DNA of 64,000 bases, taken from the NCBI GenBank assembly GCA_020832495.1, contig JAFIEP010000138.1, positions 1-64,000 on the forward strand, read 5' to 3'. Under the pieces are notes generated by a model. That model saw nothing but the letters and a program-made list of their open reading frames with translations. It was not told where the DNA came from and did no database searches. Of the stretch, positions 4,048-64,000 are shown piece by piece. A program made the translations under genes and the position numbers. The first letter of the stretch is position 1. Each line of letters starts with the position of its first letter. This DNA is from Acidimicrobiia bacterium. Its GTDB lineage: Bacteria; Actinomycetota; Acidimicrobiia; Acidimicrobiales; Acidimicrobilacustridaceae.

Positions 4048-5175
4048 ATGACGCTCTCCATCGGACCGCTGCGCCTCGACCCGCCCGTGGTGCTCGCCCC
4101 CATGGCCGGTGTGACCAACGTGGCCTTCCGCCGACTGTGCCGCCAGTTCGGCGCCGGGCTCTACGTGAGCGAGATGGTCACCGCCCGAGCACTGGTGGAG
4201 GGCAACGAACGCACCAGACGGATGGTGGCGCGGGACGACGGTGAGCCGACCCACAGCGTGCAGCTCTACAGCGTGCATCCCGAGGTGCTGGCGCGGGCCG
4301 TGCGGATCCTGATCGACGACATCGGGGTGGACCACGTCGATCTCAACTTCGGCTGCCCGGCGCCCAAGGTCACCCGTCGCGGTGGGGGCGCCGCGCTTCC
4401 GCTCCACCCCCGGCTCCTCCAACGGCTCGTCGAGTCTGCCGTGGGTTCCGCCGGGCGCGTCCCGGTCACGGTGAAGATGCGGATGGGCATCGACGACTCG
4501 CTGCGCACCGACATCGAGGCAGCCCGCATCGCCGAGGACGCTGGGGCAGCAGCGGTGGCGTTGCACGCTCGCACCGCGGTGCAGCTCTACTCCGGCGAGG
4601 CCCGCTGGGAGGCCATCGCCGAGCTCCGCGCCAGTGTGCGCAGCATCCCGGTCCTCGGCAACGGCGACATCTGGCGAGCCGAAGACGCGTTGGCCATGCA
4701 CGAGGCAACCGGTTGCGACGGCGTGGTCATCGGCCGAGGCTGCCTGGGTCGGCCCTGGCTGTTCCGGGACCTGGCCTGCGCTTACGCAGGCGAACCGATC
4801 CCGCCACCGCCCACCTTCGGCGAGACGGTGGCCACCATGCGAGAACACCTCGAGCTGCTGTGCGCCCACCTGGGTGGTCTCGGCGGGGTGCGCGACTTCC
4901 GCAAGCACCTTGCCTGGTACCTGGTCGGCTATCCGGTCGGTCGGGCGCGCCGCCACGAATTGAACCGGGCCAACGACCCCGAGGTGGTCGACGCCCTCCT
5001 CGCCCGCCTGCTGGACGTCGTCGACCCAGACCTGCGCCTCGACCCGGTGACCGCCACCCTGCCCCGGGGGCACACGAACGGCCCACGCCCGGTGGCGCTC
5101 CCCGACGGGTGGCTCGACAGCCGCCACGACGACCAACCCCCGGCCGGTGCCGAGCTGTTGGTCTCGGGCGGCTGA
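4048..5175 (+). CDS. dusB: tRNA-dihydrouridine synthase
   Basis: This FMN-dependent enzyme reduces uridines in the tRNA D-loop. The 375-residue protein starts with the TIM-barrel strand PPVVLAPMAGVTNVAFRR. It carries the DHVDLNFGCPAPKVTRRGGGAAL segment, whose Cys is the catalytic general acid, VKMRMGID, the phosphate-binding LGNGDI and CDGVVIGRGCLGRPWLF motifs, and the C-terminal helical tRNA-binding domain with FRKHLAWYLVGYP. All diagnostic motifs are intact. The giant inverted repeat begins inside this gene at 4371, so its mirror copy at the window end is incomplete. It converges on clpC across a strong hairpin. Confidence 0.92.
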   Translation: MTLSIGPLRLDPPVVLAPMAGVTNVAFRRLCRQFGAGLYVSEMVTARALVEGNERTRRMVARDDGEPTHSVQLYSVHPEVLARAVRILIDDIGVDHVDLNFGCPAPKVTRRGGGAALPLHPRLLQRLVESAVGSAGRVPVTVKMRMGIDDSLRTDIEAARIAEDAGAAAVALHARTAVQLYSGEARWEAIAELRASVRSIPVLGNGDIWRAEDALAMHEATGCDGVVIGRGCLGRPWLFRDLACAYAGEPIPPPPTFGETVATMREHLELLCAHLGGLGGVRDFRKHLAWYLVGYPVGRARRHELNRANDPEVVDALLARLLDVVDPDLRLDPVTATLPRGHTNGPRPVALPDGWLDSRHDDQPPAGAELLVSGG

Positions 5176-5244
5176 TAGAGCGGCGCCCGCGACCTCCCGA
5201 CCGACCTCCCGGCCGGCGCCGAGCTGCTGGTGTCGGACGGCTGA
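5142..5244 (+). repeat. Imperfect 34-base direct repeat of the dus gene tail
   Basis: The last 34 bases of dus including its stop (5142-5175) recur with a few substitutions at 5211-5244, again ending in TGA after codons for an AELLV-like peptide. The copies are 69 bases apart. This looks like a local tandem duplication of the gene end or the residue of an older, longer C-terminus. Confidence 0.6.
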
Positions 5245-5286
5245 AGCCGCCGTGTGATCACCGCACCGGCCATCGACACCGGACGC

Positions 5287-5322
5287 GTCGAGGGGGCGCA
5301 CCCATGGGCACGCCCCCTCGAC
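5287..5322. terminator. Bidirectional hairpin terminator between dus and clpC
   Basis: A perfect 12-bp stem (GTCGAGGGGGCG, 5287-5298, with its complement at 5311-5322) encloses a 12-base loop. It lies between the convergent dus and clpC stops and can act on both transcripts. No U-tract follows, as is common in high-GC actinobacteria. Confidence 0.7.
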
Positions 5323-5345
5323 AATCGCTCGGTGGTTCCTACTGC

Positions 5346-7919
<2,574 letters not shown>

Positions 7920-8074
7920 GGGACATGCCTCCCGAAGAGATCGTGAGTCAAGTCTAGCCACCCCACTGACAATCCCGACGGGCGGGACCCACCGGGTTGC
8001 GGTGATCTCGGCGCAGAACCCCTGCGGGTGGCTCGGGTTGGGTGGTCACCGGGCCTTGGGCCTAGATTCAGGTC

Positions 8075-9073
8075 GTGGCGTCATCGGGACCCCTCGTCGA
8101 CCACGAGGTCATCGCCGCCGACCTGGACCGGCTGGAGGGGGCGCTGCGTGCTGCGGTGACCACCGAGGACCCCTTCCTGACCGAGATCGCCTCACACCTC
8201 ATCGAGGCCGGCGGCAAGCGAGGTCGTCCACTCTTCGCCGTGGCGGCGGCCGCCACCGGCACGACGAGTGTCGAACCGGCCGGTGAGGACGTACTGAGCG
8301 GCAGTGTGTCGGTCGAATTGGTGCACCTCGGCTCGCTGTACCACGACGACGTCATGGACGAGGCCAGCGTGCGGCGCAGCGTGGAGAGCGTGAACGCTCG
8401 CTGGGGCAACCTCCAGGCCATCCTCGCCGGTGACTTCCTCCTGGCCCGGGCGTCCGAGATCGCCGCCAACCTCAGCATGGAGGTGGCGGCCCTGCTGGCC
8501 CGCACCATCGCCCGACTGTGCGAGGGCCAGGTCCTCGAACTACGCGACACCTACAACGCCGCTCGCACCGAGCAGGCGTACCTGGCATCGATCGAGGGCA
8601 AGACGGCCTCCCTGTTCGCCTCTGCCTGCCGCATCGGGGCGATCACCGGCGGCTTGGACCGCCCTGCGGTCGAGGCGCTCACCGAGTTCGGGCGCAGCTA
8701 CGGCATGGCCTTCCAGATCGTGGACGACATCTTGGACGTCACCGCCACCGACGAGGTGCTGGGCAAGCCCGCTGGGAACGACCTCATCGAGGGCGTCTAC
8801 ACCCTGCCGGTCCTGCGGACGATCGCCGCCGGTGGCAAGCCGGCCGACGTACTGGCCGGCTTGCTCGGGCGGCCACTGGACACGGCCGAGATGCACGACG
8901 CCCGTGAGGCCGTCCGCTCGGGCGGCCAGGTGGCGGCCGCCACCGACGTCGCCCGCCAGTGGGTCGACCGGGCGACCGAGTCGCTGGCCGAGCTGGCACC
9001 GTCCGAAGCCGGCGAGGCCCTCGCCGGACAGGCCGAGCACCTCGTCGAGCAACTCACCGCCGCCACGAGCTGA
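8075..9073 (+). CDS. Polyprenyl diphosphate synthase (trans-isoprenyl diphosphate synthase)
   Basis: The 332-residue enzyme condenses isopentenyl diphosphate with allylic diphosphates to build the prenyl chain used for menaquinone or other polyprenoids. Seen: GGKRGRP (46-52, IPP-binding), the first Asp-rich motif DDVMD (91-95) followed by Arg-Arg, GDFLLARA, KTASLF, and the second Asp-rich motif DDILD (217-221). All catalytic elements are present. Chain length cannot be fixed from sequence by eye. It starts with GTG; a TAGATT -10 box (8063-8068) lies 6 bases upstream, so the transcript is likely leaderless. It is divergent from clpC. Confidence 0.9.
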   Translation: MASSGPLVDHEVIAADLDRLEGALRAAVTTEDPFLTEIASHLIEAGGKRGRPLFAVAAAATGTTSVEPAGEDVLSGSVSVELVHLGSLYHDDVMDEASVRRSVESVNARWGNLQAILAGDFLLARASEIAANLSMEVAALLARTIARLCEGQVLELRDTYNAARTEQAYLASIEGKTASLFASACRIGAITGGLDRPAVEALTEFGRSYGMAFQIVDDILDVTATDEVLGKPAGNDLIEGVYTLPVLRTIAAGGKPADVLAGLLGRPLDTAEMHDAREAVRSGGQVAAATDVARQWVDRATESLAELAPSEAGEALAGQAEHLVEQLTAATS

Positions 9074-9160
9074 TCCACGTACCGGCCTGGCCGGACGGTT
9101 GCGGGACCGCGGCGTGTCGCCGCCACCCCTGAGCAGCGGAGCGACGCAACAATCGCTGGG

Positions 9161-9808
9161 TCACTCGTTCTCGGGGCCGCCGGGTTCTCCCTCTCGATCG
9201 GCCCCGATCCCGCCTTCCCCCTCGTTGCGGCCTGTCGCCTCGACCAGCCGGAGCAATGCCCAGTCGAGGCACTCTTCCGCTTCCTCGGGGCTGACCCCTC
9301 CGACATCGAGCAACTGGAAGTACGTGCGGGTGGCGAACAACACCCGAACCAGCGCCACCAAGCGCCGCACCTCCCACTCGTCAGCTCCCGCCACGTCGGC
9401 TTCGAGAGCGCGGCGGACCCAAGCCAAGCGTTCCTCGGCCTCGACCAGACTCAGCTGTCGCTCCTCGGGTGAGAGCAGCTTCGCCCGCTGGAACGGCTCG
9501 TCAGCCAGCGCGGCGCGCACCACTGACCGCTGGATGGTCCGCAGCTCGTCGACCGACGTCGGTCTCGGCATTCCCTCGAGGCCGAGGCCTCTGCGGACCC
9601 GGTTCCCCATGGCCTCGATGAGGTCGTCACGGCTCGGGAAGTGTCGGTAGACGGTCCGCAGCGCAACACCTGCATGCTCCGCGATACCGGCCATGGTCAG
9701 GTGCTCCCCCGGGCGCGAAACCACCAGCTCGGCCGCCGCCTCGACGATCCGCTCGGCGGTGGCCGCTGCCTGTTGGGCACGCAGCGGACTCTCGTACGAC
9801 CGGTTCAT
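9161..9808 (-). CDS. TetR-family transcriptional regulator
   Basis: This is a 215-residue one-component repressor. The N-terminal helix-turn-helix (about residues 12-60) reads AAELVVSRPGEHLTMAGIAEHAGVALRTVYRHFPSRDDLIEAM, the classical TetR signature. The C-terminal ligand domain is helical and unassigned, with an acidic Gly/Glu-rich tail. A TAGGGT box 6 bases before the ATG suggests a leaderless message. It is transcribed away from the cupredoxin-like lipoprotein gene, and an inverted repeat between them overlaps that gene's -35, so it probably controls itself and that neighbour. Confidence 0.88.
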   Translation of the reverse strand: MNRSYESPLRAQQAAATAERIVEAAAELVVSRPGEHLTMAGIAEHAGVALRTVYRHFPSRDDLIEAMGNRVRRGLGLEGMPRPTSVDELRTIQRSVVRAALADEPFQRAKLLSPEERQLSLVEAEERLAWVRRALEADVAGADEWEVRRLVALVRVLFATRTYFQLLDVGGVSPEEAEECLDWALLRLVEATGRNEGEGGIGADREGEPGGPENE

Positions 9809-9857
9809 GGTTCCACCCTACCGGGCATCCGTGGTCATCATGTCACGCGATTATGTA

Positions 9858-9886
9858 TTGACAACACACTAACATGTCATGAATAT
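9858..9886 (+). promoter_or_regulatory. Divergent promoter and putative TetR operator
   Basis: A -35 TTGACA (9858-9863) is followed 17 bases later by a weak -10 GAATAT (9881-9886), pointing at the lipoprotein gene. The bases TGACA (9859-9863) and TGTCA (9875-9879) form an inverted repeat with an 11-base centre, overlapping the -35. A second CATGTCA lies at 9839-9845, so the TetR regulator could bind two sites. Confidence 0.5.
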
Positions 9887-9929
9887 GCCCATGTGCACCC
9901 CGCACATCCGACAGCCCTGGGAGGGACTG

Positions 9930-10565
9930 ATGAACACGAAACCCCGCAAGCGACGACTGTTGACCACGGTGGCAGCCACCGGACTGCTGCTGGCCCCCAT
10001 GGCCTGCAGCGACGATGACGACGGCGACGACGTCGACACCACGAACGACACCCCCACCACCGCGGTGGACGAAACCACCGATGACACCACCGACGACACG
10101 AACGGCACTGGGGGCGACGACGAGGGCGCAGCCGGCAACGTCGTCGTGGTGACCATGACCGACTTCGCCTTCGACCTGCCCGACGAGTTGCCTGCCGGCA
10201 CCACGCTCGAGTTGGTCAACGAGTCGCCCGTCGAGGTCCATGAGGTCGTCCTGTTCCGCCTCGACGACGACGAGGACCGATCGCTCGAGGAACTGCTCGA
10301 GCTCCCCCAGGAAGAGCTCATGGCCGTCGCTGAGATGCGGGGCGTCGGCTTCGCCGCTCCCGACAGTGACGACGCCGTCTACCCGATGGGGCCGCTCGTC
10401 CTCGACGAGGCCGGTCGCTGGATCGCCCTCTGCGCCATCCCCACCGGCGCCGATCCCGACGAGTGGTTGGCCGAGGCTGCGGCCAACCCCGGACCACCGG
10501 ACGTCGACGGCGGGCCCCCGCACCTGGTGCACGGGATGGTCTCGCTCGTCGAGGTGACCGACTGA
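9930..10565 (+). CDS. Cupredoxin-like copper-binding lipoprotein
   Basis: The 211-residue protein has a lipoprotein-type signal ending APMAC (Cys26), an extremely acidic Asp/Thr linker (about 27-68), and a beta-rich C-terminal domain. The domain carries the ligand set of a type 1 copper site in the correct order: His104 (VEVHEVV), Cys168 (ALCAIP), His201 with His198 close by, and Met203 (HLVHGM). An electron-transfer or copper-storage role outside the membrane is likely by family knowledge. I start at the ATG at 9930 because GGAGG lies 5 bases upstream; the frame from 9879 lacks this. A perfect 15-bp hairpin follows the stop, and a small membrane protein gene lies downstream. Confidence 0.65.
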   Translation: MNTKPRKRRLLTTVAATGLLLAPMACSDDDDGDDVDTTNDTPTTAVDETTDDTTDDTNGTGGDDEGAAGNVVVVTMTDFAFDLPDELPAGTTLELVNESPVEVHEVVLFRLDDDEDRSLEELLELPQEELMAVAEMRGVGFAAPDSDDAVYPMGPLVLDEAGRWIALCAIPTGADPDEWLAEAAANPGPPDVDGGPPHLVHGMVSLVEVTD

Positions 10566-10570
10566 GTCCT

Positions 10571-10619
10571 CCCCGGTGTCGGTCGTCTCACCCCCTCGTG
10601 GCGGCGACCGACACCGGGG
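10571..10619 (+). terminator. Strong hairpin after the cupredoxin-like gene
   Basis: CCCCGGTGTCGGTCG (10571-10585) pairs perfectly over 15 bp with 10605-10619 around a 19-base loop. It may be a terminator or an attenuating structure limiting read-through into the small membrane protein gene 36 bases further on. No U-tract is present. Confidence 0.65.
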
Positions 10620-10654
10620 CGCTCCGGGCCTCCACGGCCACGAAAGGATCCGCA

Positions 10655-10891
10655 ATGCGCGCCAACACTGCACTGCGCTGGGTGCACCTGGGCTTCGGTC
10701 TGGTGCTGTCCTACTACTTCTTGTTCAAGCCGCCCGACGGATGGTCCGACAGTTTCGAGAACTTCGTCAGCGGCATGGTGATGACCGTCGTGGCCTGGAC
10801 CGGCATCATCAAGTGGCAACTTCCCCACCTCCGTCGGTGGTGGCGGAAGCGGCGAGCCGACCCCCAGCAGGTCGGCGCGGCCGACGGCTGA
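10655..10891 (+). CDS. Small membrane protein of unknown function
   Basis: The 78-residue protein has two hydrophobic segments (about 9-26 and 39-55), separated by a short PPDGWSDSFENF loop, and a strongly basic tail (HLRRWWRKRR) that should stay in the cytoplasm. The start ATG has a GAAAGGA ribosome-binding sequence 6 bases upstream. It lies behind the cupredoxin-like gene on the same strand and could form part of the same redox or metal module, separated by a hairpin that may reduce its expression. No family recognised. Confidence 0.65.
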   Translation: MRANTALRWVHLGFGLVLSYYFLFKPPDGWSDSFENFVSGMVMTVVAWTGIIKWQLPHLRRWWRKRRADPQQVGAADG

Positions 10892-10909
10892 TCACCGCGG
10901 CGATCGGGC

Positions 10910-11737
10910 TCAGGCCACCTCGGCGTCGCCCAGGGCCCGGACGCGCTCGATGAAGCCGAGCACCGTGCGGTTGTAGGCCCCGGCCTGCTCGACCATGAAC
11001 CCGTGTGCCGCGCCGATGACCACCGCCAACTCGGCGTCGGGCACGAGGTCGACGATCTCCTCACTGTCACCCACGGGGGTGAGGATGTCCTGGCTGCCGA
11101 CGATGGCCAGCGTGGGCGCCGCCACCCCGCCCAACTCTTCCCGCACACCGTCGTCCATCGAGACGATGGCGTCGATCTGGGCCACGAACACCTCGGGCGG
11201 GATGTCCATGGCGAGGGGTCCCAGCAGGTCGATGGCCGGCCGGAAACGGCGCAGCATCCGAGGTCCCACGAGCCAGCGGGCCGCCTGTTGGCTGAGTTCA
11301 CCCATCCCCGACTCGAGTGCCAGTTCCCGCCACTCGGCGAGCAGTTCGAGACGCCACCTGAGGTGGCGGCACGCCGTGCAGGCCAAGGTCAGTGACCTGA
11401 CCCGCTCCGGGCTCCGCACACCGAGGATCTGGGCGATCACTCCGCCCATGGACGCACCCATGACGTGCGCCGAGCCGATGCCCTCGGCATCCAACACGGC
11501 CACGGCGTCCGCCGCCATCACCTCGAGGTCGTACGGACCCTCGGGCCGGTCGGAGCGACCGACCCCCCGGTTGTCCATGACCACCACCCGGTGGCCTCGA
11601 GCGAAGGCGCGGCGCTGCCGCACCCACCCGCGGCTGTCCGCACCGAGCCCTTGGATCATCAGCACCGGCTCGGCGTCACGCGGGCCGGACACGGAGTAGG
11701 CAATGGTGGTGCCGTCGGGGGCGGTGGCGGTGGACAC
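10910..11737 (-). CDS. Alpha/beta-fold hydrolase
   Basis: The 275-residue protein has the alpha/beta hydrolase layout: oxyanion-side loop MIQGLGADSRGW, the DNRGVGRSDRP turn, nucleophile elbow GASMGG with the catalytic Ser, the acid in GSQDILTP, and the His in GAAHGF. The helical cap is moderate in size. Substrate cannot be named; such genes are often esterases or lactonases. I start at GTG (11735-11737), where family similarity begins; a TACAGT -10 box lies 7 bases before it, so it is probably leaderless. The longer in-frame extension upstream overlaps the divergent kinase gene and is low-complexity. Confidence 0.85.
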   Translation of the reverse strand: MSTATAPDGTTIAYSVSGPRDAEPVLMIQGLGADSRGWVRQRRAFARGHRVVVMDNRGVGRSDRPEGPYDLEVMAADAVAVLDAEGIGSAHVMGASMGGVIAQILGVRSPERVRSLTLACTACRHLRWRLELLAEWRELALESGMGELSQQAARWLVGPRMLRRFRPAIDLLGPLAMDIPPEVFVAQIDAIVSMDDGVREELGGVAAPTLAIVGSQDILTPVGDSEEIVDLVPDAELAVVIGAAHGFMVEQAGAYNRTVLGFIERVRALGDAEVA

Positions 11738-11844
11738 GCTGAACACTGTACGGGCGACCGCGGCGCGATCCGGAGATGGCGGCGCTGGACTGCGACGCGT
11801 GACACCACCCGGAGCCTGCGGGTCAACCCGACATAGGGTTGGGC

Positions 11845-13173
11845 ATGACCGAGGCCCGCCGGGGGGAACGTCACGAGCGTCGACCCGCGGAAGACTCGTC
11901 GGCAGCAACACCGATGACCCCGTTGCGGCGGACCGACGGCGCCGAGGGTACGTGGGAGGACAGCCTCTGGGCCGGGATCGCCGTGTTCCGCTGGGCGGCG
12001 TGGGCCTGGATGGCCCTCGTCGCCGCCGCCGACCTCGGTGCGGGAGGGGTTGCGCATCCGGAGGTCATGGTGGTCCTCGTGGCGACGGCGCTGGCCGTGA
12101 CCGTGGCCGCCACGCTGCTGTTGCGACAGCAACCGGCAGCGCTGTGCAGCACGCCATGGTTGGCCGGCGAACTGGCGCTCGGCGCCACGCTGTTGTTCGC
12201 CGACTGGTGGGTGTACGGACCGAACGGCATCCACTCGCAGTCGCTCGGTTCGGTCTGGCCACTGGCCGGGGTGCTGGCCGTGGGCGTTCGGGCCGGACCG
12301 CTGTGGGGCACGCTGGCCGGGACCTCAGTGGGCGTGGCCTCGCTGGCCGGCGAAGTGGCCTTCCTGCCCGACCTCGGTGGCTCGGCGTTGTTCGGGTTGG
12401 CCGGCACCATCGTCCTCTACGCCCTCGGAGGCGGCGTGGCCGGTGTGTTCGCCCGCCGACTGCGGGCGGCGGCTGCGGAGGTGGCCATGGCCCGAGCACG
12501 CGAGGAGGTGGCGCGCACCCTCCACGACGGGGTGTTGCAGACGCTGGCCGTCATCCAACGGCGCAGCACCGACACCGAGCTCACCTCATTGGCCCGGGAG
12601 CAGGAAGCCGACCTCCGGGAGTTCCTGTTCACCGAGGCATCGCGCAGCGGCACCGCCGGGTCGACCACGGTCGGGTCGCACTCCCCCGTCACCGAGGTTC
12701 CCACGCTCGTCGGCGCGTTGCGCACCGCCGCTACCCGGGCCACACGGCTGCACGGCCTGCGCGTGGACGTGGCCGCCGTGCCTGGTCTCGACGAACCCCC
12801 CGAGCCGGTGGTGCGGGCGGTGGCGGCCGCGGTGGGGGAGTGCCTGACCAACGCAGCCAAGCACGGGGCGGCAACCCGGGCCACCGTGTTCGTCGACATC
12901 GATGATCCCGCTCCAACCGCCGCCATGGAGTTCCGGGCCGAGGCTGGCACCGCCGACAGCGGCGCGCCGGGACTGCTCTGCACGGTGAAGGACGACGGGT
13001 CGGGCTTCGATCCCGCCACGGTGCCCGAAGGTGCCGGGCTCCGGCTCTCGGTGCGCGCCAGACTGTCGGAGGTGGGTGGACGCGTGACGATCGAGTCCCG
13101 ACCGGGTTCGGGTACCGAGATCTGCCTCCACGTGCCGGCGACGACCACCCGACGATGGGGAGGCACCCGATGA
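11845..13173 (+). CDS. NarL-type sensor histidine kinase
   Basis: The 442-residue kinase has about six N-terminal transmembrane segments (about 43-205), no periplasmic sensor domain, and a HisKA_3 dimerisation helix with the phospho-acceptor His227 in ARTLHDGVLQTL. The HATPase domain shows ECLTNAAKHG (N box) and DDGSGFDP (G1 box), then the GAGLRLSVRARL region. It should autophosphorylate and pass phosphate to the regulator whose ATG overlaps its stop (ATGA). The signal is probably membrane-state or redox related; this is inference. A TAGGGT box just upstream of the ATG suggests leaderless transcription. Confidence 0.88.
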   Translation: MTEARRGERHERRPAEDSSAATPMTPLRRTDGAEGTWEDSLWAGIAVFRWAAWAWMALVAAADLGAGGVAHPEVMVVLVATALAVTVAATLLLRQQPAALCSTPWLAGELALGATLLFADWWVYGPNGIHSQSLGSVWPLAGVLAVGVRAGPLWGTLAGTSVGVASLAGEVAFLPDLGGSALFGLAGTIVLYALGGGVAGVFARRLRAAAAEVAMARAREEVARTLHDGVLQTLAVIQRRSTDTELTSLAREQEADLREFLFTEASRSGTAGSTTVGSHSPVTEVPTLVGALRTAATRATRLHGLRVDVAAVPGLDEPPEPVVRAVAAAVGECLTNAAKHGAATRATVFVDIDDPAPTAAMEFRAEAGTADSGAPGLLCTVKDDGSGFDPATVPEGAGLRLSVRARLSEVGGRVTIESRPGSGTEICLHVPATTTRRWGGTR

Positions 13174-13802
13174 GTCGACTCTCAGCTGTGCGAGTGGTGG
13201 TCTGCGACGACCACCCCATTTGGCGTTCGGGCATGCGCAACGACCTGGGTGAGAACTTCCACGTCGTGGGCGAGGCCGGCGACGCCGCTGAGGCCATCAC
13301 GGTCATCCGCGCCACCACTCCGGACCTGGTGGTGTGCGACCTCTCGATGCCAGGCGGCGGTGGGCTCGAGGTCGCTCGACGCTGCGGAGAGGAGACGAAC
13401 GTCGTCATCCTCACCGTGAGCGAAGCCGAACGGGACGTCCTCGACGCCGTGGCCGCCGGGGCGGTCGGCTTCCTGGTGAAGTCCACCCCGCCCGAGGAGC
13501 TACGGCAGGCCCTCTGGCGCGCCGCCGAAGGCGAGCCGGTGTTCTCACCGAGCCTGGCGGCGCTGGTGCTCGGCGAGTTCCGCAACCTGTCGCGTGCTGC
13601 GGGCTCGACTCAGGCCCTGTCCGAGCGCGAACGCGAGGTGCTCCAACACGTCGCCCGCGGCCACACCTACCGTGAGATCGGCGCCGACCTGCACATCGCC
13701 GAGAAGACCGTCGAGAACCACGTGCGCAACATCTTGGCCAAGCTGCACCTCAATCGCCGCCAAGAACTCATCCGCTACGCCGTCGAGCACGGCATCGACT
13801 GA
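13170..13802 (+). CDS. NarL/FixJ-family response regulator
   Basis: The 210-residue protein has a receiver domain with acidic pocket CDDHP (Asp13, Asp14), phospho-acceptor Asp57 (VVCDLSMPGG) and the conserved Lys in FLVKSTP. A LuxR-type helix-turn-helix follows (LSEREREVLQHVARGHTYREIGADLHIAEKTVENHVRNI). It is the partner of the kinase gene that it overlaps by 4 bases, with GGGGAGG just upstream. Its targets are unknown; the large membrane protein gene downstream is separated by a repeat-rich 300-base gap. Confidence 0.92.
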   Translation: MSRLSAVRVVVCDDHPIWRSGMRNDLGENFHVVGEAGDAAEAITVIRATTPDLVVCDLSMPGGGGLEVARRCGEETNVVILTVSEAERDVLDAVAAGAVGFLVKSTPPEELRQALWRAAEGEPVFSPSLAALVLGEFRNLSRAAGSTQALSEREREVLQHVARGHTYREIGADLHIAEKTVENHVRNILAKLHLNRRQELIRYAVEHGID

Positions 13803-13834
13803 TCTCTGGCCGGCGGCGCGGTTCCGCCCGCGCC

Positions 13835-13972
13835 ACCGCGCGCAACCAACCACCCATCCGGTGGCCCACAGCGCGCAGTCCCACACCGCTCACGCTCCCG
13901 ACGACCCCCGCCGCCCGACCGCGCGCAACCAACCACCAAAGCGGTGGGCCGCTGCGCGCAGTGACCCACACC
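13835..13972. repeat. Two tandem copies of a 53-55 base hairpin repeat in a 300-base gene-free gap
   Basis: The gap 13803-14102 holds no gene. Units at 13835-13887 and 13918-13972 share one architecture: GCGCGC, AACCAA, CCACC, a variable 5-base loop, GGTGG, a 6-base spacer, GCGCGC. Outer and inner arms are identical in both units while loop and 3' spacer differ, so the paired positions are the conserved part. They could be terminators for the response regulator gene, protein-binding sites, or members of a dispersed repeat family. Confidence 0.7.
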
Positions 13973-14102
13973 CGGTGCCACCCGCCACGTCGGCGGCCTC
14001 CGTCGCCGCAGGGCTCCCGGCGACGAACCCCTGGGGGTCCCCAGGCCACGTTGAGGGCTGCACCGGATTCCAGGCAGCCCCGCCTGGGCGGATGGTGGCG
14101 GT

Positions 14103-16787: not shown

Positions 16788-16830
16788 CACACCGTGACGC
16801 CGAGACGGCGCCCCGCCAGCCCCGGGAGGG

Positions 16831-17484
16831 TCAGAGCAGCGCAGCCACCCGGGCGCAGACCTCCGACGAGACATCGTCCGCAGCACGGGCCGAGCGGCGT
16901 CGACGGGTGGCCACCGGCTCGCCGATGCGCACCTCGGGGCGCAGGGCGCGCAGGCCGCCGCGGTGGACGGCCACGGGCACCAGCGGGGCGCCCGTGGCCA
17001 GGGCGGCCTCGATGGCCCACGGTGCCGGCGGGCCGCCGGGGGTGCGCACCACGTGGCCCCAGCCGAGCCCGATGGTCACCAGGTTGCCGGCACGCAGCAG
17101 GCCACGGAGGTCGGCGGGATCGCTGCCCACGCCACCCACCCGGCGAGCCAGCGCCATGAGCGGGGCAACGTCGGGCACGCCGGTGAAGCGCACCGAACGG
17201 CCGGTGGCCCGACCGATGGCCGCCACCACCACCAACCACCCCAGGTCTGCGGGGTGGCGGTCGTGCACCAGGAGCGCCGGGCCGTCGGGGATGCGGCCGG
17301 CACCATGCACCTTGGCGCCCCAGCGCACGCTCGGGAGACGCCCCACCACGGCCACCAGGTCGCTGTCGAGTCCCCACTCGTCCACCAGGAACCGACCGGT
17401 CACCCGACGTCCGGCGATGGCCAGCGGCGAGCGGTCGATGAGCTCGGGATCACCGACACCCAGGCTGCGATCGATCTCGTTCAT
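16831..17484 (-). CDS. PlsC-like lysophospholipid acyltransferase family protein (divergent)
   Basis: This 217-residue protein has the size and hydrophobic pattern of 1-acylglycerol-phosphate acyltransferases. Seen: GAGRIPDGPALLVHDRHPADLGW in the place of the HX4D block, LLRAGNLVTIGLGW in place of the usual EGTR block, and GAPLVPVAVHRGG, the family's PVxxxG strand. The catalytic His-Asp spacing is not canonical, so activity is uncertain. Its ATG overlaps the stop of the epimerase-like gene by 4 bases, implying co-translation. Confidence 0.55.
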   Translation of the reverse strand: MNEIDRSLGVGDPELIDRSPLAIAGRRVTGRFLVDEWGLDSDLVAVVGRLPSVRWGAKVHGAGRIPDGPALLVHDRHPADLGWLVVVAAIGRATGRSVRFTGVPDVAPLMALARRVGGVGSDPADLRGLLRAGNLVTIGLGWGHVVRTPGGPPAPWAIEAALATGAPLVPVAVHRGGLRALRPEVRIGEPVATRRRRSARAADDVSSEVCARVAALL

Positions 17485-44974: not shown

Positions 44975-44980
44975 TTCACC

Positions 44981-49619: not shown

Positions 49620-49641
49620 GATCCAACGAGTGCGAGATGGC

Positions 49642-49690: not shown

Positions 49691-49930
49691 ATCTCTCAGC
49701 ACTCGGTGGGCAAACCTACGGAGTTCACCAACACTGGGAAGACCCCAGCGATCCTTCCGCGACAACCATGCTCGTAGTCCGCAGCGCACCAGGCCCACGT
49801 TCGCCGGGTTCGTCACCCCGCCGACGGTTGCTGGTCCGAGTCGCACCGTTCCAACCTCGGTGTCGTGGACCGGCGCACTAGCATCGCCTCGTGATCCGAT
49901 CTGCTCGGCAGCCGACAACGGAGCGTTGAC

Positions 49931-50890: not shown

Positions 50891-51540
50891 ACGAGATCGA
50901 TCGCAGCCTGGGTGTCGGTGATCCCGAGCTCATCGACCGCTCGCCGCTGGCCATCGCCGGACGTCGGGTGACCGGTCGGTTCCTGGTGGACGAGTGGGGA
51001 CTCGACAGCGACCTGGTGGCCGTGGTGGGGCGTCTCCCGAGCGTGCGCTGGGGCGCCAAGGTGCATGGTGCCGGCCGCATCCCCGACGGCCCGGCGCTCC
51101 TGGTGCACGACCGCCACCCCGCAGACCTGGGGTGGTTGGTGGTGGTGGCGGCCATCGGTCGGGCCACCGGCCGTTCGGTGCGCTTCACCGGCGTGCCCGA
51201 CGTTGCCCCGCTCATGGCGCTGGCTCGCCGGGTGGGTGGCGTGGGCAGCGATCCCGCCGACCTCCGTGGCCTGCTGCGTGCCGGCAACCTGGTGACCATC
51301 GGGCTCGGCTGGGGCCACGTGGTGCGCACCCCCGGCGGCCCGCCGGCACCGTGGGCCATCGAGGCCGCCCTGGCCACGGGCGCCCCGCTGGTGCCCGTGG
51401 CCGTCCACCGCGGCGGCCTGCGCGCCCTGCGCCCCGAGGTGCGCATCGGCGAGCCGGTGGCCACCCGTCGACGCCGCTCGGCCCGTGCTGCGGACGATGT
51501 CTCGTCGGAGGTCTGCGCCCGGGTGGCTGCGCTGCTCTGA
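50887..51540 (+). CDS. PlsC-like acyltransferase family protein (right-arm copy)
   Basis: Mirror copy of 16831-17484: divergent acyltransferase blocks, ATGA overlap with the SDR gene, 217 residues. Confidence 0.55.
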   Translation: MNEIDRSLGVGDPELIDRSPLAIAGRRVTGRFLVDEWGLDSDLVAVVGRLPSVRWGAKVHGAGRIPDGPALLVHDRHPADLGWLVVVAAIGRATGRSVRFTGVPDVAPLMALARRVGGVGSDPADLRGLLRAGNLVTIGLGWGHVVRTPGGPPAPWAIEAALATGAPLVPVAVHRGGLRALRPEVRIGEPVATRRRRSARAADDVSSEVCARVAALL

Positions 51541-51583
51541 CCCTCCCGGGGCTGGCGGGGCGCCGTCTCGGCGTCACGGTGTG

Positions 51584-54268: not shown

Positions 54269-54398
54269 ACCGCCACCATCCGCCCAGGCGGGGCTGCCTG
54301 GAATCCGGTGCAGCCCTCAACGTGGCCTGGGGACCCCCAGGGGTTCGTCGCCGGGAGCCCTGCGGCGACGGAGGCCGCCGACGTGGCGGGTGGCACCG

Positions 54399-54536
54399 GG
54401 TGTGGGTCACTGCGCGCAGCGGCCCACCGCTTTGGTGGTTGGTTGCGCGCGGTCGGGCGGCGGGGGTCGTCGGGAGCGTGAGCGGTGTGGGACTGCGCGC
54501 TGTGGGCCACCGGATGGGTGGTTGGTTGCGCGCGGT
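54399..54536. repeat. Two tandem hairpin repeat units (right-arm copy)
   Basis: Mirror of 13835-13972: units at 54484-54536 and 54399-54453 with paired GCGCGC and CCACC/GGTGG arms, in the gene-free stretch 54269-54568. Confidence 0.7.
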
Positions 54537-54568
54537 GGCGCGGGCGGAACCGCGCCGCCGGCCAGAGA

Positions 54569-55201
54569 TCAGTCGATGCCGTGCTCGACGGCGTAGCGGA
54601 TGAGTTCTTGGCGGCGATTGAGGTGCAGCTTGGCCAAGATGTTGCGCACGTGGTTCTCGACGGTCTTCTCGGCGATGTGCAGGTCGGCGCCGATCTCACG
54701 GTAGGTGTGGCCGCGGGCGACGTGTTGGAGCACCTCGCGTTCGCGCTCGGACAGGGCCTGAGTCGAGCCCGCAGCACGCGACAGGTTGCGGAACTCGCCG
54801 AGCACCAGCGCCGCCAGGCTCGGTGAGAACACCGGCTCGCCTTCGGCGGCGCGCCAGAGGGCCTGCCGTAGCTCCTCGGGCGGGGTGGACTTCACCAGGA
54901 AGCCGACCGCCCCGGCGGCCACGGCGTCGAGGACGTCCCGTTCGGCTTCGCTCACGGTGAGGATGACGACGTTCGTCTCCTCTCCGCAGCGTCGAGCGAC
55001 CTCGAGCCCACCGCCGCCTGGCATCGAGAGGTCGCACACCACCAGGTCCGGAGTGGTGGCGCGGATGACCGTGATGGCCTCAGCGGCGTCGCCGGCCTCG
55101 CCCACGACGTGGAAGTTCTCACCCAGGTCGTTGCGCATGCCCGAACGCCAAATGGGGTGGTCGTCGCAGACCACCACTCGCACAGCTGAGAGTCGACTCA
55201 T
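54569..55201 (-). CDS. NarL/FixJ-family response regulator (right-arm copy)
   Basis: Mirror copy of 13170-13802: receiver domain with Asp57, LuxR-type helix-turn-helix, 210 residues. Confidence 0.92.
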   Translation of the reverse strand: MSRLSAVRVVVCDDHPIWRSGMRNDLGENFHVVGEAGDAAEAITVIRATTPDLVVCDLSMPGGGGLEVARRCGEETNVVILTVSEAERDVLDAVAAGAVGFLVKSTPPEELRQALWRAAEGEPVFSPSLAALVLGEFRNLSRAAGSTQALSEREREVLQHVARGHTYREIGADLHIAEKTVENHVRNILAKLHLNRRQELIRYAVEHGID

Positions 55202-56526
55202 CGGGTGCCTCCCCATCGTCGGGTGGTCGTCGCCGGCACGTGGAGGCAGATCTCGGTACCCGAACCCGGTCGGGACTCGATCGTCACGCGTCCACCCACC
55301 TCCGACAGTCTGGCGCGCACCGAGAGCCGGAGCCCGGCACCTTCGGGCACCGTGGCGGGATCGAAGCCCGACCCGTCGTCCTTCACCGTGCAGAGCAGTC
55401 CCGGCGCGCCGCTGTCGGCGGTGCCAGCCTCGGCCCGGAACTCCATGGCGGCGGTTGGAGCGGGATCATCGATGTCGACGAACACGGTGGCCCGGGTTGC
55501 CGCCCCGTGCTTGGCTGCGTTGGTCAGGCACTCCCCCACCGCGGCCGCCACCGCCCGCACCACCGGCTCGGGGGGTTCGTCGAGACCAGGCACGGCGGCC
55601 ACGTCCACGCGCAGGCCGTGCAGCCGTGTGGCCCGGGTAGCGGCGGTGCGCAACGCGCCGACGAGCGTGGGAACCTCGGTGACGGGGGAGTGCGACCCGA
55701 CCGTGGTCGACCCGGCGGTGCCGCTGCGCGATGCCTCGGTGAACAGGAACTCCCGGAGGTCGGCTTCCTGCTCCCGGGCCAATGAGGTGAGCTCGGTGTC
55801 GGTGCTGCGCCGTTGGATGACGGCCAGCGTCTGCAACACCCCGTCGTGGAGGGTGCGCGCCACCTCCTCGCGTGCTCGGGCCATGGCCACCTCCGCAGCC
55901 GCCGCCCGCAGTCGGCGGGCGAACACACCGGCCACGCCGCCTCCGAGGGCGTAGAGGACGATGGTGCCGGCCAACCCGAACAACGCCGAGCCACCGAGGT
56001 CGGGCAGGAAGGCCACTTCGCCGGCCAGCGAGGCCACGCCCACTGAGGTCCCGGCCAGCGTGCCCCACAGCGGTCCGGCCCGAACGCCCACGGCCAGCAC
56101 CCCGGCCAGTGGCCAGACCGAACCGAGCGACTGCGAGTGGATGCCGTTCGGTCCGTACACCCACCAGTCGGCGAACAACAGCGTGGCGCCGAGCGCCAGT
56201 TCGCCGGCCAACCATGGCGTGCTGCACAGCGCTGCCGGTTGCTGTCGCAACAGCAGCGTGGCGGCCACGGTCACGGCCAGCGCCGTCGCCACGAGGACCA
56301 CCATGACCTCCGGATGCGCAACCCCTCCCGCACCGAGGTCGGCGGCGGCGACGAGGGCCATCCAGGCCCACGCCGCCCAGCGGAACACGGCGATCCCGGC
56401 CCAGAGGCTGTCCTCCCACGTACCCTCGGCGCCGTCGGTCCGCCGCAACGGGGTCATCGGTGTTGCTGCCGACGAGTCTTCCGCGGGTCGACGCTCGTGA
56501 CGTTCCCCCCGGCGGGCCTCGGTCAT
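55198..56526 (-). CDS. NarL-type sensor histidine kinase (right-arm copy)
   Basis: Mirror copy of 11845-13173: six-segment membrane part, HisKA_3 His227, HATPase N and G1 boxes, 442 residues. Confidence 0.88.
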   Translation of the reverse strand: MTEARRGERHERRPAEDSSAATPMTPLRRTDGAEGTWEDSLWAGIAVFRWAAWAWMALVAAADLGAGGVAHPEVMVVLVATALAVTVAATLLLRQQPAALCSTPWLAGELALGATLLFADWWVYGPNGIHSQSLGSVWPLAGVLAVGVRAGPLWGTLAGTSVGVASLAGEVAFLPDLGGSALFGLAGTIVLYALGGGVAGVFARRLRAAAAEVAMARAREEVARTLHDGVLQTLAVIQRRSTDTELTSLAREQEADLREFLFTEASRSGTAGSTTVGSHSPVTEVPTLVGALRTAATRATRLHGLRVDVAAVPGLDEPPEPVVRAVAAAVGECLTNAAKHGAATRATVFVDIDDPAPTAAMEFRAEAGTADSGAPGLLCTVKDDGSGFDPATVPEGAGLRLSVRARLSEVGGRVTIESRPGSGTEICLHVPATTTRRWGGTR

Positions 56527-56633
56527 GCCCAACCCTATGTCGGGTTGACCCGCAGGCTCCGGGTGGTGTCACGCGTCGCAGTCCAGCGCCGCCATCTCCG
56601 GATCGCGCCGCGGTCGCCCGTACAGTGTTCAGC

Positions 56634-57461
56634 GTGTCCACCGCCACCGCCCCCGACGGCACCACCATTGCCTACTCCGTGTCCGGCCCGCGTGACGCCG
56701 AGCCGGTGCTGATGATCCAAGGGCTCGGTGCGGACAGCCGCGGGTGGGTGCGGCAGCGCCGCGCCTTCGCTCGAGGCCACCGGGTGGTGGTCATGGACAA
56801 CCGGGGGGTCGGTCGCTCCGACCGGCCCGAGGGTCCGTACGACCTCGAGGTGATGGCGGCGGACGCCGTGGCCGTGTTGGATGCCGAGGGCATCGGCTCG
56901 GCGCACGTCATGGGTGCGTCCATGGGCGGAGTGATCGCCCAGATCCTCGGTGTGCGGAGCCCGGAGCGGGTCAGGTCACTGACCTTGGCCTGCACGGCGT
57001 GCCGCCACCTCAGGTGGCGTCTCGAACTGCTCGCCGAGTGGCGGGAACTGGCACTCGAGTCGGGGATGGGTGAACTCAGCCAACAGGCGGCCCGCTGGCT
57101 CGTGGGACCTCGGATGCTGCGCCGTTTCCGGCCGGCCATCGACCTGCTGGGACCCCTCGCCATGGACATCCCGCCCGAGGTGTTCGTGGCCCAGATCGAC
57201 GCCATCGTCTCGATGGACGACGGTGTGCGGGAAGAGTTGGGCGGGGTGGCGGCGCCCACGCTGGCCATCGTCGGCAGCCAGGACATCCTCACCCCCGTGG
57301 GTGACAGTGAGGAGATCGTCGACCTCGTGCCCGACGCCGAGTTGGCGGTGGTCATCGGCGCGGCACACGGGTTCATGGTCGAGCAGGCCGGGGCCTACAA
57401 CCGCACGGTGCTCGGCTTCATCGAGCGCGTCCGGGCCCTGGGCGACGCCGAGGTGGCCTGA
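56634..57461 (+). CDS. Alpha/beta-fold hydrolase (right-arm copy)
   Basis: Mirror copy of 10910-11737: GASMGG nucleophile elbow, GSQDILTP and GAAHGF, GTG start 7 bases after TACAGT. Confidence 0.85.
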   Translation: MSTATAPDGTTIAYSVSGPRDAEPVLMIQGLGADSRGWVRQRRAFARGHRVVVMDNRGVGRSDRPEGPYDLEVMAADAVAVLDAEGIGSAHVMGASMGGVIAQILGVRSPERVRSLTLACTACRHLRWRLELLAEWRELALESGMGELSQQAARWLVGPRMLRRFRPAIDLLGPLAMDIPPEVFVAQIDAIVSMDDGVREELGGVAAPTLAIVGSQDILTPVGDSEEIVDLVPDAELAVVIGAAHGFMVEQAGAYNRTVLGFIERVRALGDAEVA

Positions 57462-57479
57462 GCCCGATCGCCGCGGTGA

Positions 57480-57716
57480 TCAGCCGTCGGCCGCGCCGAC
57501 CTGCTGGGGGTCGGCTCGCCGCTTCCGCCACCACCGACGGAGGTGGGGAAGTTGCCACTTGATGATGCCGGTCCAGGCCACGACGGTCATCACCATGCCG
57601 CTGACGAAGTTCTCGAAACTGTCGGACCATCCGTCGGGCGGCTTGAACAAGAAGTAGTAGGACAGCACCAGACCGAAGCCCAGGTGCACCCAGCGCAGTG
57701 CAGTGTTGGCGCGCAT
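57480..57716 (-). CDS. Small membrane protein (right-arm copy)
   Basis: Mirror copy of 10655-10891: 78 residues, two hydrophobic segments and a basic tail. Confidence 0.65.
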   Translation of the reverse strand: MRANTALRWVHLGFGLVLSYYFLFKPPDGWSDSFENFVSGMVMTVVAWTGIIKWQLPHLRRWWRKRRADPQQVGAADG

Positions 57717-57751
57717 TGCGGATCCTTTCGTGGCCGTGGAGGCCCGGAGCG

Positions 57752-57800
57752 CCCCGGTGTCGGTCGCCGCCACGAGGGGGTGAGACGACCGACACCGGGG
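57752..57800 (-). terminator. Strong hairpin after the cupredoxin-like gene (right-arm copy)
   Basis: Mirror of 10571-10619: perfect 15-bp stem, 19-base loop. Confidence 0.65.
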
Positions 57801-57805
57801 AGGAC

Positions 57806-58441
57806 TCAGTCGGTCACCTCGACGAGCGAGACCATCCCGTGCACCAGGTGCGGGGGCCCGCCGTCGACGTCCGGTGGTCCGGGGTTGGCCGCAGCCTCGG
57901 CCAACCACTCGTCGGGATCGGCGCCGGTGGGGATGGCGCAGAGGGCGATCCAGCGACCGGCCTCGTCGAGGACGAGCGGCCCCATCGGGTAGACGGCGTC
58001 GTCACTGTCGGGAGCGGCGAAGCCGACGCCCCGCATCTCAGCGACGGCCATGAGCTCTTCCTGGGGGAGCTCGAGCAGTTCCTCGAGCGATCGGTCCTCG
58101 TCGTCGTCGAGGCGGAACAGGACGACCTCATGGACCTCGACGGGCGACTCGTTGACCAACTCGAGCGTGGTGCCGGCAGGCAACTCGTCGGGCAGGTCGA
58201 AGGCGAAGTCGGTCATGGTCACCACGACGACGTTGCCGGCTGCGCCCTCGTCGTCGCCCCCAGTGCCGTTCGTGTCGTCGGTGGTGTCATCGGTGGTTTC
58301 GTCCACCGCGGTGGTGGGGGTGTCGTTCGTGGTGTCGACGTCGTCGCCGTCGTCATCGTCGCTGCAGGCCATGGGGGCCAGCAGCAGTCCGGTGGCTGCC
58401 ACCGTGGTCAACAGTCGTCGCTTGCGGGGTTTCGTGTTCAT
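57806..58441 (-). CDS. Cupredoxin-like lipoprotein (right-arm copy)
   Basis: Mirror copy of 9930-10565: lipobox Cys26, acidic linker, His104/Cys168/His201/Met203 type 1 copper ligand pattern, 211 residues. Confidence 0.65.
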   Translation of the reverse strand: MNTKPRKRRLLTTVAATGLLLAPMACSDDDDGDDVDTTNDTPTTAVDETTDDTTDDTNGTGGDDEGAAGNVVVVTMTDFAFDLPDELPAGTTLELVNESPVEVHEVVLFRLDDDEDRSLEELLELPQEELMAVAEMRGVGFAAPDSDDAVYPMGPLVLDEAGRWIALCAIPTGADPDEWLAEAAANPGPPDVDGGPPHLVHGMVSLVEVTD

Positions 58442-58484
58442 CAGTCCCTCCCAGGGCTGTCGGATGTGCGGGGTGCACATGGGC

Positions 58485-58513
58485 ATATTCATGACATGTT
58501 AGTGTGTTGTCAA
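58485..58513 (-). promoter_or_regulatory. Divergent promoter and putative TetR operator (right-arm copy)
   Basis: Mirror of 9858-9886: TTGACA -35 overlapped by a TGACA-N11-TGTCA inverted repeat (58492-58512). Confidence 0.5.
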
Positions 58514-58562
58514 TACATAATCGCGTGACATGATGACCACGGATGCCCGGTAGGGTGGAACC

Positions 58563-59210
58563 ATGAACCGGTCGTACGAGAGTCCGCTGCGTGCCCAACA
58601 GGCAGCGGCCACCGCCGAGCGGATCGTCGAGGCGGCGGCCGAGCTGGTGGTTTCGCGCCCGGGGGAGCACCTGACCATGGCCGGTATCGCGGAGCATGCA
58701 GGTGTTGCGCTGCGGACCGTCTACCGACACTTCCCGAGCCGTGACGACCTCATCGAGGCCATGGGGAACCGGGTCCGCAGAGGCCTCGGCCTCGAGGGAA
58801 TGCCGAGACCGACGTCGGTCGACGAGCTGCGGACCATCCAGCGGTCAGTGGTGCGCGCCGCGCTGGCTGACGAGCCGTTCCAGCGGGCGAAGCTGCTCTC
58901 ACCCGAGGAGCGACAGCTGAGTCTGGTCGAGGCCGAGGAACGCTTGGCTTGGGTCCGCCGCGCTCTCGAAGCCGACGTGGCGGGAGCTGACGAGTGGGAG
59001 GTGCGGCGCTTGGTGGCGCTGGTTCGGGTGTTGTTCGCCACCCGCACGTACTTCCAGTTGCTCGATGTCGGAGGGGTCAGCCCCGAGGAAGCGGAAGAGT
59101 GCCTCGACTGGGCATTGCTCCGGCTGGTCGAGGCGACAGGCCGCAACGAGGGGGAAGGCGGGATCGGGGCCGATCGAGAGGGAGAACCCGGCGGCCCCGA
59201 GAACGAGTGA
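58563..59210 (+). CDS. TetR-family regulator (right-arm copy)
   Basis: Mirror copy of 9161-9808: TetR helix-turn-helix, 215 residues, TAGGGT box 6 bases before the ATG. Confidence 0.88.
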   Translation: MNRSYESPLRAQQAAATAERIVEAAAELVVSRPGEHLTMAGIAEHAGVALRTVYRHFPSRDDLIEAMGNRVRRGLGLEGMPRPTSVDELRTIQRSVVRAALADEPFQRAKLLSPEERQLSLVEAEERLAWVRRALEADVAGADEWEVRRLVALVRVLFATRTYFQLLDVGGVSPEEAEECLDWALLRLVEATGRNEGEGGIGADREGEPGGPENE

Positions 59211-59297
59211 CCCAGCGATTGTTGCGTCGCTCCGCTGCTCAGGGGTGGCGGCGACACGCCGCGGTCCCGCAACCGTCCGGCCAGGCCGGTACGTGGA

Positions 59298-60296
59298 TCA
59301 GCTCGTGGCGGCGGTGAGTTGCTCGACGAGGTGCTCGGCCTGTCCGGCGAGGGCCTCGCCGGCTTCGGACGGTGCCAGCTCGGCCAGCGACTCGGTCGCC
59401 CGGTCGACCCACTGGCGGGCGACGTCGGTGGCGGCCGCCACCTGGCCGCCCGAGCGGACGGCCTCACGGGCGTCGTGCATCTCGGCCGTGTCCAGTGGCC
59501 GCCCGAGCAAGCCGGCCAGTACGTCGGCCGGCTTGCCACCGGCGGCGATCGTCCGCAGGACCGGCAGGGTGTAGACGCCCTCGATGAGGTCGTTCCCAGC
59601 GGGCTTGCCCAGCACCTCGTCGGTGGCGGTGACGTCCAAGATGTCGTCCACGATCTGGAAGGCCATGCCGTAGCTGCGCCCGAACTCGGTGAGCGCCTCG
59701 ACCGCAGGGCGGTCCAAGCCGCCGGTGATCGCCCCGATGCGGCAGGCAGAGGCGAACAGGGAGGCCGTCTTGCCCTCGATCGATGCCAGGTACGCCTGCT
59801 CGGTGCGAGCGGCGTTGTAGGTGTCGCGTAGTTCGAGGACCTGGCCCTCGCACAGTCGGGCGATGGTGCGGGCCAGCAGGGCCGCCACCTCCATGCTGAG
59901 GTTGGCGGCGATCTCGGACGCCCGGGCCAGGAGGAAGTCACCGGCGAGGATGGCCTGGAGGTTGCCCCAGCGAGCGTTCACGCTCTCCACGCTGCGCCGC
60001 ACGCTGGCCTCGTCCATGACGTCGTCGTGGTACAGCGAGCCGAGGTGCACCAATTCGACCGACACACTGCCGCTCAGTACGTCCTCACCGGCCGGTTCGA
60101 CACTCGTCGTGCCGGTGGCGGCCGCCGCCACGGCGAAGAGTGGACGACCTCGCTTGCCGCCGGCCTCGATGAGGTGTGAGGCGATCTCGGTCAGGAAGGG
60201 GTCCTCGGTGGTCACCGCAGCACGCAGCGCCCCCTCCAGCCGGTCCAGGTCGGCGGCGATGACCTCGTGGTCGACGAGGGGTCCCGATGACGCCAC
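59298..60296 (-). CDS. Polyprenyl diphosphate synthase (right-arm copy)
   Basis: Mirror copy of 8075-9073: DDVMD and DDILD motifs, GTG start, 332 residues. Confidence 0.9.
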   Translation of the reverse strand: MASSGPLVDHEVIAADLDRLEGALRAAVTTEDPFLTEIASHLIEAGGKRGRPLFAVAAAATGTTSVEPAGEDVLSGSVSVELVHLGSLYHDDVMDEASVRRSVESVNARWGNLQAILAGDFLLARASEIAANLSMEVAALLARTIARLCEGQVLELRDTYNAARTEQAYLASIEGKTASLFASACRIGAITGGLDRPAVEALTEFGRSYGMAFQIVDDILDVTATDEVLGKPAGNDLIEGVYTLPVLRTIAAGGKPADVLAGLLGRPLDTAEMHDAREAVRSGGQVAAATDVARQWVDRATESLAELAPSEAGEALAGQAEHLVEQLTAATS

Positions 60297-60451
60297 GACC
60301 TGAATCTAGGCCCAAGGCCCGGTGACCACCCAACCCGAGCCACCCGCAGGGGTTCTGCGCCGAGATCACCGCAACCCGGTGGGTCCCGCCCGTCGGGATT
60401 GTCAGTGGGGTGGCTAGACTTGACTCACGATCTCTTCGGGAGGCATGTCCC

Positions 60452-63025
<2,574 letters not shown>

Positions 63026-63048
63026 GCAGTAGGAACCACCGAGCGATT

Positions 63049-63084
63049 GTCGAGGGGGCGTGCCCATGGGTGCGCCCCCTCGAC
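63049..63084. terminator. Bidirectional hairpin between clpC and dus (right-arm copy)
   Basis: Mirror of 5287-5322: 12-bp perfect stem with 12-base loop. Confidence 0.7.
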
Positions 63085-63126
63085 GCGTCCGGTGTCGATG
63101 GCCGGTGCGGTGATCACACGGCGGCT

Positions 63127-63229
63127 TCAGCCGTCCGACACCAGCAGCTCGGCGCCGGCCGGGAGGTCGGTCGGGAGGTCGCGGGCGCCGCTCTATCAGC
63201 CGCCCGAGACCAACAGCTCGGCACCGGCC
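63127..63229 (-). repeat. Direct repeat of the dus gene tail (right-arm copy)
   Basis: Mirror of 5142-5244: two imperfect 34-base copies, 69 bases apart, the proximal one forming the dus 3' end. Confidence 0.6.
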
Positions 63230-64000
63230 GGGGGTTGGTCGTCGTGGCGGCTGTCGAGCCACCCGTCGGGGAGCGCCACCGGGCGTGGGCCGTTCGTGTG
63301 CCCCCGGGGCAGGGTGGCGGTCACCGGGTCGAGGCGCAGGTCTGGGTCGACGACGTCCAGCAGGCGGGCGAGGAGGGCGTCGACCACCTCGGGGTCGTTG
63401 GCCCGGTTCAATTCGTGGCGGCGCGCCCGACCGACCGGATAGCCGACCAGGTACCAGGCAAGGTGCTTGCGGAAGTCGCGCACCCCGCCGAGACCACCCA
63501 GGTGGGCGCACAGCAGCTCGAGGTGTTCTCGCATGGTGGCCACCGTCTCGCCGAAGGTGGGCGGTGGCGGGATCGGTTCGCCTGCGTAAGCGCAGGCCAG
63601 GTCCCGGAACAGCCAGGGCCGACCCAGGCAGCCTCGGCCGATGACCACGCCGTCGCAACCGGTTGCCTCGTGCATGGCCAACGCGTCTTCGGCTCGCCAG
63701 ATGTCGCCGTTGCCGAGGACCGGGATGCTGCGCACACTGGCGCGGAGCTCGGCGATGGCCTCCCAGCGGGCCTCGCCGGAGTAGAGCTGCACCGCGGTGC
63801 GAGCGTGCAACGCCACCGCTGCTGCCCCAGCGTCCTCGGCGATGCGGGCTGCCTCGATGTCGGTGCGCAGCGAGTCGTCGATGCCCATCCGCATCTTCAC
63901 CGTGACCGGGACGCGCCCGGCGGAACCCACGGCAGACTCGACGAGCCGTTGGAGGAGCCGGGGGTGGAGCGGAAGCGCGGCGCCCCCACCGCGACGGGTG
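63196..64000 (-). CDS. dusB: tRNA-dihydrouridine synthase, 5' end off window (right-arm copy)
   Basis: Mirror of the 3' part of the dus gene at 4048-5175. The window ends in the VTRRGGGAAL region, so the N-terminal FMN-binding strands and the catalytic Cys of NFGCPAP are not included. The C-terminal tRNA-binding domain is complete. Confidence 0.9.
   Translation of the reverse strand, partial: TRRGGGAALPLHPRLLQRLVESAVGSAGRVPVTVKMRMGIDDSLRTDIEAARIAEDAGAAAVALHARTAVQLYSGEARWEAIAELRASVRSIPVLGNGDIWRAEDALAMHEATGCDGVVIGRGCLGRPWLFRDLACAYAGEPIPPPPTFGETVATMREHLELLCAHLGGLGGVRDFRKHLAWYLVGYPVGRARRHELNRANDPEVVDALLARLLDVVDPDLRLDPVTATLPRGHTNGPRPVALPDGWLDSRHDDQPPAGAELLVSGG

What the first reader, a model, noticed from the sequence alone, without database searches (positions are those of the whole stretch)
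4371..64000. A perfect, spacer-less inverted repeat of about 2 x 29.8 kb covers 93% of the window
Every base from 4371 is mirrored around 34185.5 with no mismatch seen, including intergenic DNA and a disabled nadC. Head-to-head housekeeping arms of this size would be unstable in a living cell, and the axis truncates folP in both arms. The simplest reading is an amplification or long-read fold-back, or an assembly-graph error. The alternatives are a real inverted duplication or a replicon end closed by a hairpin. Until resolved, gene counts from this contig should be halved.
Basis: partly seen in the sequence, partly recalled or inferred. Interest (0 to 1): 0.95.

Follow-up and report, generated by a model that had tools for sequence, protein, structure and literature searches.

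The report
Assembly fold-back at a folP palindrome
The giant mirror-image repeat is not a property of the bacterium: the assembly turned back onto its own opposite strand at a natural 22-letter palindrome inside the folP gene, and the missing part of that gene sits at the tip of another contig of the same genome.

Summary
The window is bases 1-64000 of contig C50, which is 68,370 bp, exactly 2 x 34,185, and equals its own reverse complement with no mismatch. The axis (34185|34186) is the centre of GCGGGTGTCGATCGACACCCGC, a 22-nt perfect palindrome natural to folP. The missing 5' part of folP lies at the tip of contig C112 of the same genome; joining the two gives an uninterrupted FolP frame behind ftsH and folE. 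Relatives agree: folE directly precedes folP in 51 of 80 loci, and none of the 80 has an inverted copy. The outer tip of the arm overlaps contig C59 by exactly 141 nt, as 13 other contig joints here do, which fits a de Bruijn assembler with largest k = 141. In a toy graph, k=21 plus a coverage hole close to the palindrome gives a self-complementary contig; k>=23 or a broken palindrome does not. Verdict: assembly (or library) fold-back artefact. The likely true order is C59 - one arm - C112; one 34,185-bp arm is surplus and its genes should be counted once.

The parts
1..34185 (+). Arm 1: the single real chromosomal segment
   Evidence: Contig = arm + its reverse complement, 0 mismatches
34186..64000 (-). 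Arm 2 (runs on to 68370 in the contig): mirror copy of arm 1. Which of the two is called the surplus copy is arbitrary
34175..34196 (.). 22-nt perfect palindrome GCGGGTGTCGATCGACACCCGC, natural to folP; its centre is the axis
   Evidence: Present when C112 is read on into the arm; longest palindrome within 200 nt of that joint
34186..34721 (+). 3' part of folP in arm 2 (Pterin_bind 80-244). The longer ORF listed at 34038-34721 has a false N-terminus read from the mirror strand
33650..34185 (-). The same 3' part of folP in arm 1
1..141 (+). Exact 141-nt overlap with the end of contig C59 (bases 32867-33007): the true neighbour of the arm's outer end
   Evidence: a reading frame crosses the join

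Best explanation
Contig C50 is one 34,185-bp chromosomal segment followed by its own reverse complement, made during short-read assembly. The likely true order is C59 - arm - C112, with folP spanning the arm/C112 joint. folP contains a 22-nt perfect palindrome. In a de Bruijn graph with k=21 (edges of 22 bases) this palindrome is an edge equal to its own reverse complement, so a path arriving from the arm can leave onto the arm's opposite strand. If the branch towards C112 is thinly covered and gets pruned, only the false path arm - palindrome - reversed arm remains and is carried into the rounds with larger k. Shown: self-complementarity of the whole contig, the palindrome, the C112 continuation, the 141-nt overlap signature, the toy-graph behaviour. 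Inferred: a MEGAHIT-like program with smallest k near 21, and thin coverage beside the palindrome.
For: The whole contig is self-complementary, 2 x 34,185. The missing 5' part of folP is at the very tip of C112 in the same genome; joined at the axis the frame is uninterrupted. C112 also carries ftsH and folE, giving ftsH-folE-folP-folB-folK, the order in relatives, with no inverted copy in 80 loci. Both outer ends of C50 lead to the same C59 end through an exact 141-nt overlap, and 13 other contig-end pairs share exactly 141 nt. Toy graph: k=21 with a hole 25 nt beside the palindrome gave a self-complementary contig in 3 of 3 seeds; k=23, 29, 39 or a palindrome broken by one base never did. 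PMC5242441 states that even k-mers are avoided because palindromes introduce branches that are hard to resolve.
Against: Reads, depth and the program name are not available here. Eight other palindromes of 22-24 nt that are not poly-G were passed without folding, so the palindrome alone is not sufficient; the needed loss of coverage on one side is assumed. In the toy graph a hole 5 nt away worked in only 1 of 3 seeds and a hole 200 nt away in none. C112 and C50 share 20 nt, not exactly k=21.
Confidence: 0.75

Rival explanations
1. In-vitro fold-back: during library preparation or amplification a strand ending at the folP palindrome hairpinned, primed on itself and gave a few inverted inserts; the assembler then followed this false link and wrote out the whole opposite strand.
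For: The 5' tips of contigs C43 and C59 are short fold-backs (132 of 139 and 107 of 129 mirrored positions) around poly-G/poly-C runs, and no interior inverted repeat of 30 nt or more within 300 bp was found in the 2.1 Mb read. Inverted chimeras primed at complementary stretches of 2-21 nt are documented for multiple displacement amplification (PMC1855051).
Against: The C50 joint has no loop, no poly-G and no missing bases, unlike the C43 and C59 tips. The palindrome with small k explains it without chimeric reads.
Confidence: 0.23
2. A real head-to-head duplication of the 34-kb segment in the cell, or in part of the population.
For: A 22-nt palindrome could in principle seed an inverted duplication; depth cannot be checked here.
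Against: Both outer ends lead to the same C59 end, so a real structure would have to go on as a mirror beyond the contig. The normal continuation C112 exists in the same assembly. The arms do not differ at a single base in 34,185 and end exactly at the contig ends. No related locus has it. Long perfect palindromes are unstable in bacteria (general knowledge).
Confidence: 0.015
3. A linear replicon closed by a hairpin telomere at the axis.
For: A covalently closed hairpin end would also read as a perfect palindrome without spacer.
Against: Sequence continues past the axis on C112, within a housekeeping gene and in the gene order of relatives.
Confidence: 0.005

Closest known systems
Palindrome-induced ambiguity in de Bruijn graph assembly
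   Same: A palindrome as long as the graph's word joins a path to its own opposite strand; this is why even k is usually avoided (PMC5242441; PMC3656733).
   Different: With odd k the nodes are safe but the (k+1)-base edges are not; here the result was emitted as a full-length self-complementary contig of 68 kb. I found no paper in the held library that describes this exact outcome.
Inverted chimeras and palindromic reads from whole-genome amplification
   Same: Artificial inverted joints primed at short complementary stretches (PMC1855051; PMC6218980 and PMC13265396, listed).
   Different: Those arise in vitro, usually with an intervening deletion, and their arms are limited by the molecule; here the arm is the whole 34-kb contig and the joint is seamless.
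Hairpin telomeres of linear bacterial replicons
   Same: Perfect inverted symmetry at an end.
   Different: A true end has nothing beyond it; here C112 continues the gene past the axis.

Membership tests
Assembly fold-back artefact | Whole contig equals its own reverse complement, with arms ending exactly at the contig ends | tested here: met
   68,370 = 2 x 34,185, 0 mismatches
Assembly fold-back artefact | True continuation past the axis exists elsewhere in the same assembly | tested here: met
   C112 tip carries the missing 5' part of folP; joined frame is open
Assembly fold-back artefact | Axis at a natural short palindrome at least k+1 bases long for the smallest k | tested here: met
   22-nt palindrome at the joint, k+1 for k=21; that k=21 was used is inferred from the 141-nt overlaps and general knowledge of MEGAHIT defaults
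Assembly fold-back artefact | Single read depth over the arm and no reads across the false joint | not testable with these tools
   No reads are available
Real inverted duplication | Different unique sequence at the two outer ends | tested here: not met
   Both ends match the same 141 bases at the end of C59, the only other full match in the genome
Real inverted duplication | Twofold depth and junction-spanning reads | not testable with these tools
   No reads are available
Hairpin-closed linear replicon end | No sequence beyond the axis | tested here: not met
   C112 continues folP past the axis

The most novel reading that the evidence does not exclude
Part of the population carries a real 34-kb head-to-head duplication formed at the folP palindrome, alongside the normal arrangement C59 - arm - C112.
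Probability: 0.01. Interest if true: 0.5.

Novelty: not a real feature. Interest (0 to 1): 0.05.

Why it matters
It matters for data quality only. Roughly thirty genes of this genome are counted twice, 34 kb of sequence is surplus, and folP appears as two false hybrid ORFs plus a fragment on another contig although the gene is intact in sequence. A simple test (is a contig its own reverse complement?) would flag such contigs in other draft genomes before copy numbers or duplications are read from them.

Tried and rejected
The genome-contig scan leaves out the window's own record, so the deposited assembly and its program name could not be read. Literature searches for this exact outcome found nothing. 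A tRNA gene near the axis: none anywhere in the window. Long-read fold-back was considered, but 141-nt overlaps and poly-G tips fit short reads. The hypothesis that every palindrome of 22 nt or more folds was rejected: eight others are read through.

Full report
Observation. The window is bases 1-64000 of contig C50 of genome G000 (147 contigs, 4,461,226 bases). Mirroring around 34185.5 gives 29,815 complementary pairs and no mismatch. The contig is 68,370 bases long and is exactly its own reverse complement.

Axis. The arm carries only the 3' part of folP (Pterin_bind from position 80). A search of the same genome with Pterin_bind finds positions 1-80 at bases 2-235, minus strand, of the 4,176-bp contig C112. 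C112 begins GGGTGTCGATCGACACCCGC. Read together, C112 and the arm give GCGGGTGTCGATCGACACCCGC, a 22-nt perfect palindrome centred on the axis, and one uninterrupted FolP frame (...VVEALAGEVRVSIDTRHAEVARAAV...). C112 and C50 share 20 nt there. C112 also holds FtsH and FolE ahead of folP (recognised from their translations), and the arm holds folB and folK behind it: ftsH-folE-folP-folB-folK. The ORF listed at 34038-34721 has a false N-terminus translated from the mirror strand.

Relatives. Eighty loci, mostly from Acidimicrobiia metagenome-assembled genomes, carry a relative of the gene that follows folP. With tblastn of C112 and arm proteins, 53 have folP contiguous from the C112 part to the arm part, 51 have folE directly upstream, and none has a reversed copy of the folK, folB, panC or adjoining gene. 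Several loci are short, so the counts are lower bounds.

Outer ends. Bases 1-141 of C50 are identical to the last 141 bases of C59, the only other full match in the genome, and an open reading frame crosses that join. Because C50 is self-complementary, both of its ends lead to the same C59 end. Thirteen other pairs of contig ends overlap by exactly 141 nt. From my own knowledge this is what MEGAHIT leaves with its default largest k of 141, and its default list begins at 21; the program name was not confirmed from the record.

Mechanism. A graph with k=21 has edges of 22 bases, so the folP palindrome is an edge equal to its own reverse complement. A toy graph of the joined locus shows what follows. 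With even coverage the palindrome is a branch and the contig stops there. With a coverage hole 25 nt away on the C112 side, the short side branch is pruned and the contig becomes arm + mirrored arm in 3 of 3 random seeds. With k of 23, 29 or 39, or with the palindrome broken by one base, it never does. A hole 5 nt away gave it in 1 of 3 seeds and a hole 200 nt away in none. Eight other 22-24-nt palindromes that are not poly-G were passed without folding, which fits the need for lost coverage on one side. PMC5242441 says that palindromes are why even k is avoided.

Rival. The 5' tips of C43 and C59 are short fold-backs around poly-G/poly-C, so the library probably contained inverted inserts, and such an insert at the palindrome could have started the false path. 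The resulting letters would be the same. Either way the second arm is not in the genome.

Conclusion. The repeat is an artefact (about 98%). Within that, graph fold-back is favoured over library fold-back. The genes of one arm should be counted once, the likely order is C59 - arm - C112, and folP is intact in sequence. The broken nadC is a separate matter: it is the only QRPTase_C gene found in this genome and has one in-frame TAG. Because the second arm is a copy of the same consensus, the two copies are not independent evidence that this stop is real.

Noticed in passing
26128-26130 (-), mirrored at 42241-42243 (+): nadC has one in-frame TAG; it is the only QRPTase_C gene found in this genome. 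It may be a consensus error, a strain variant or a real loss; the mirror copy is not independent evidence.
   Followed up: partly
18752-24386: A possible small mobile or accessory island between housekeeping genes: large serine recombinase (18752-19858), DUF4238 protein (20546-21643), AbiEii/AbiEi type IV toxin-antitoxin pair (21775-23399) and a PIN-domain protein (23922-24386).
   Followed up: partly
G000 C43 bases 1-280 (L136) and C59 bases 1-261 (L151): Contig tips that fold back on themselves around poly-G/poly-C runs; C106, C135 and C138 also have poly-G/poly-C runs at or near their starts. Probably sequencing-library artefacts of two-colour chemistry.
   Followed up: partly
34718-35239 (+), mirrored 33132-33653 (-): Gene between folP and folB with no Pfam match at E <= 0.001; conserved in that position in many Acidimicrobiia. 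From its HNEELGDSVCGFMCGYL-like motif it may be a diverged dual-specificity-phosphatase-like protein (inference, not tested).
   Followed up: no
G000 C16, C44, C56, C68: Four short contigs read entirely as N, i.e. withheld or masked.
   Followed up: no
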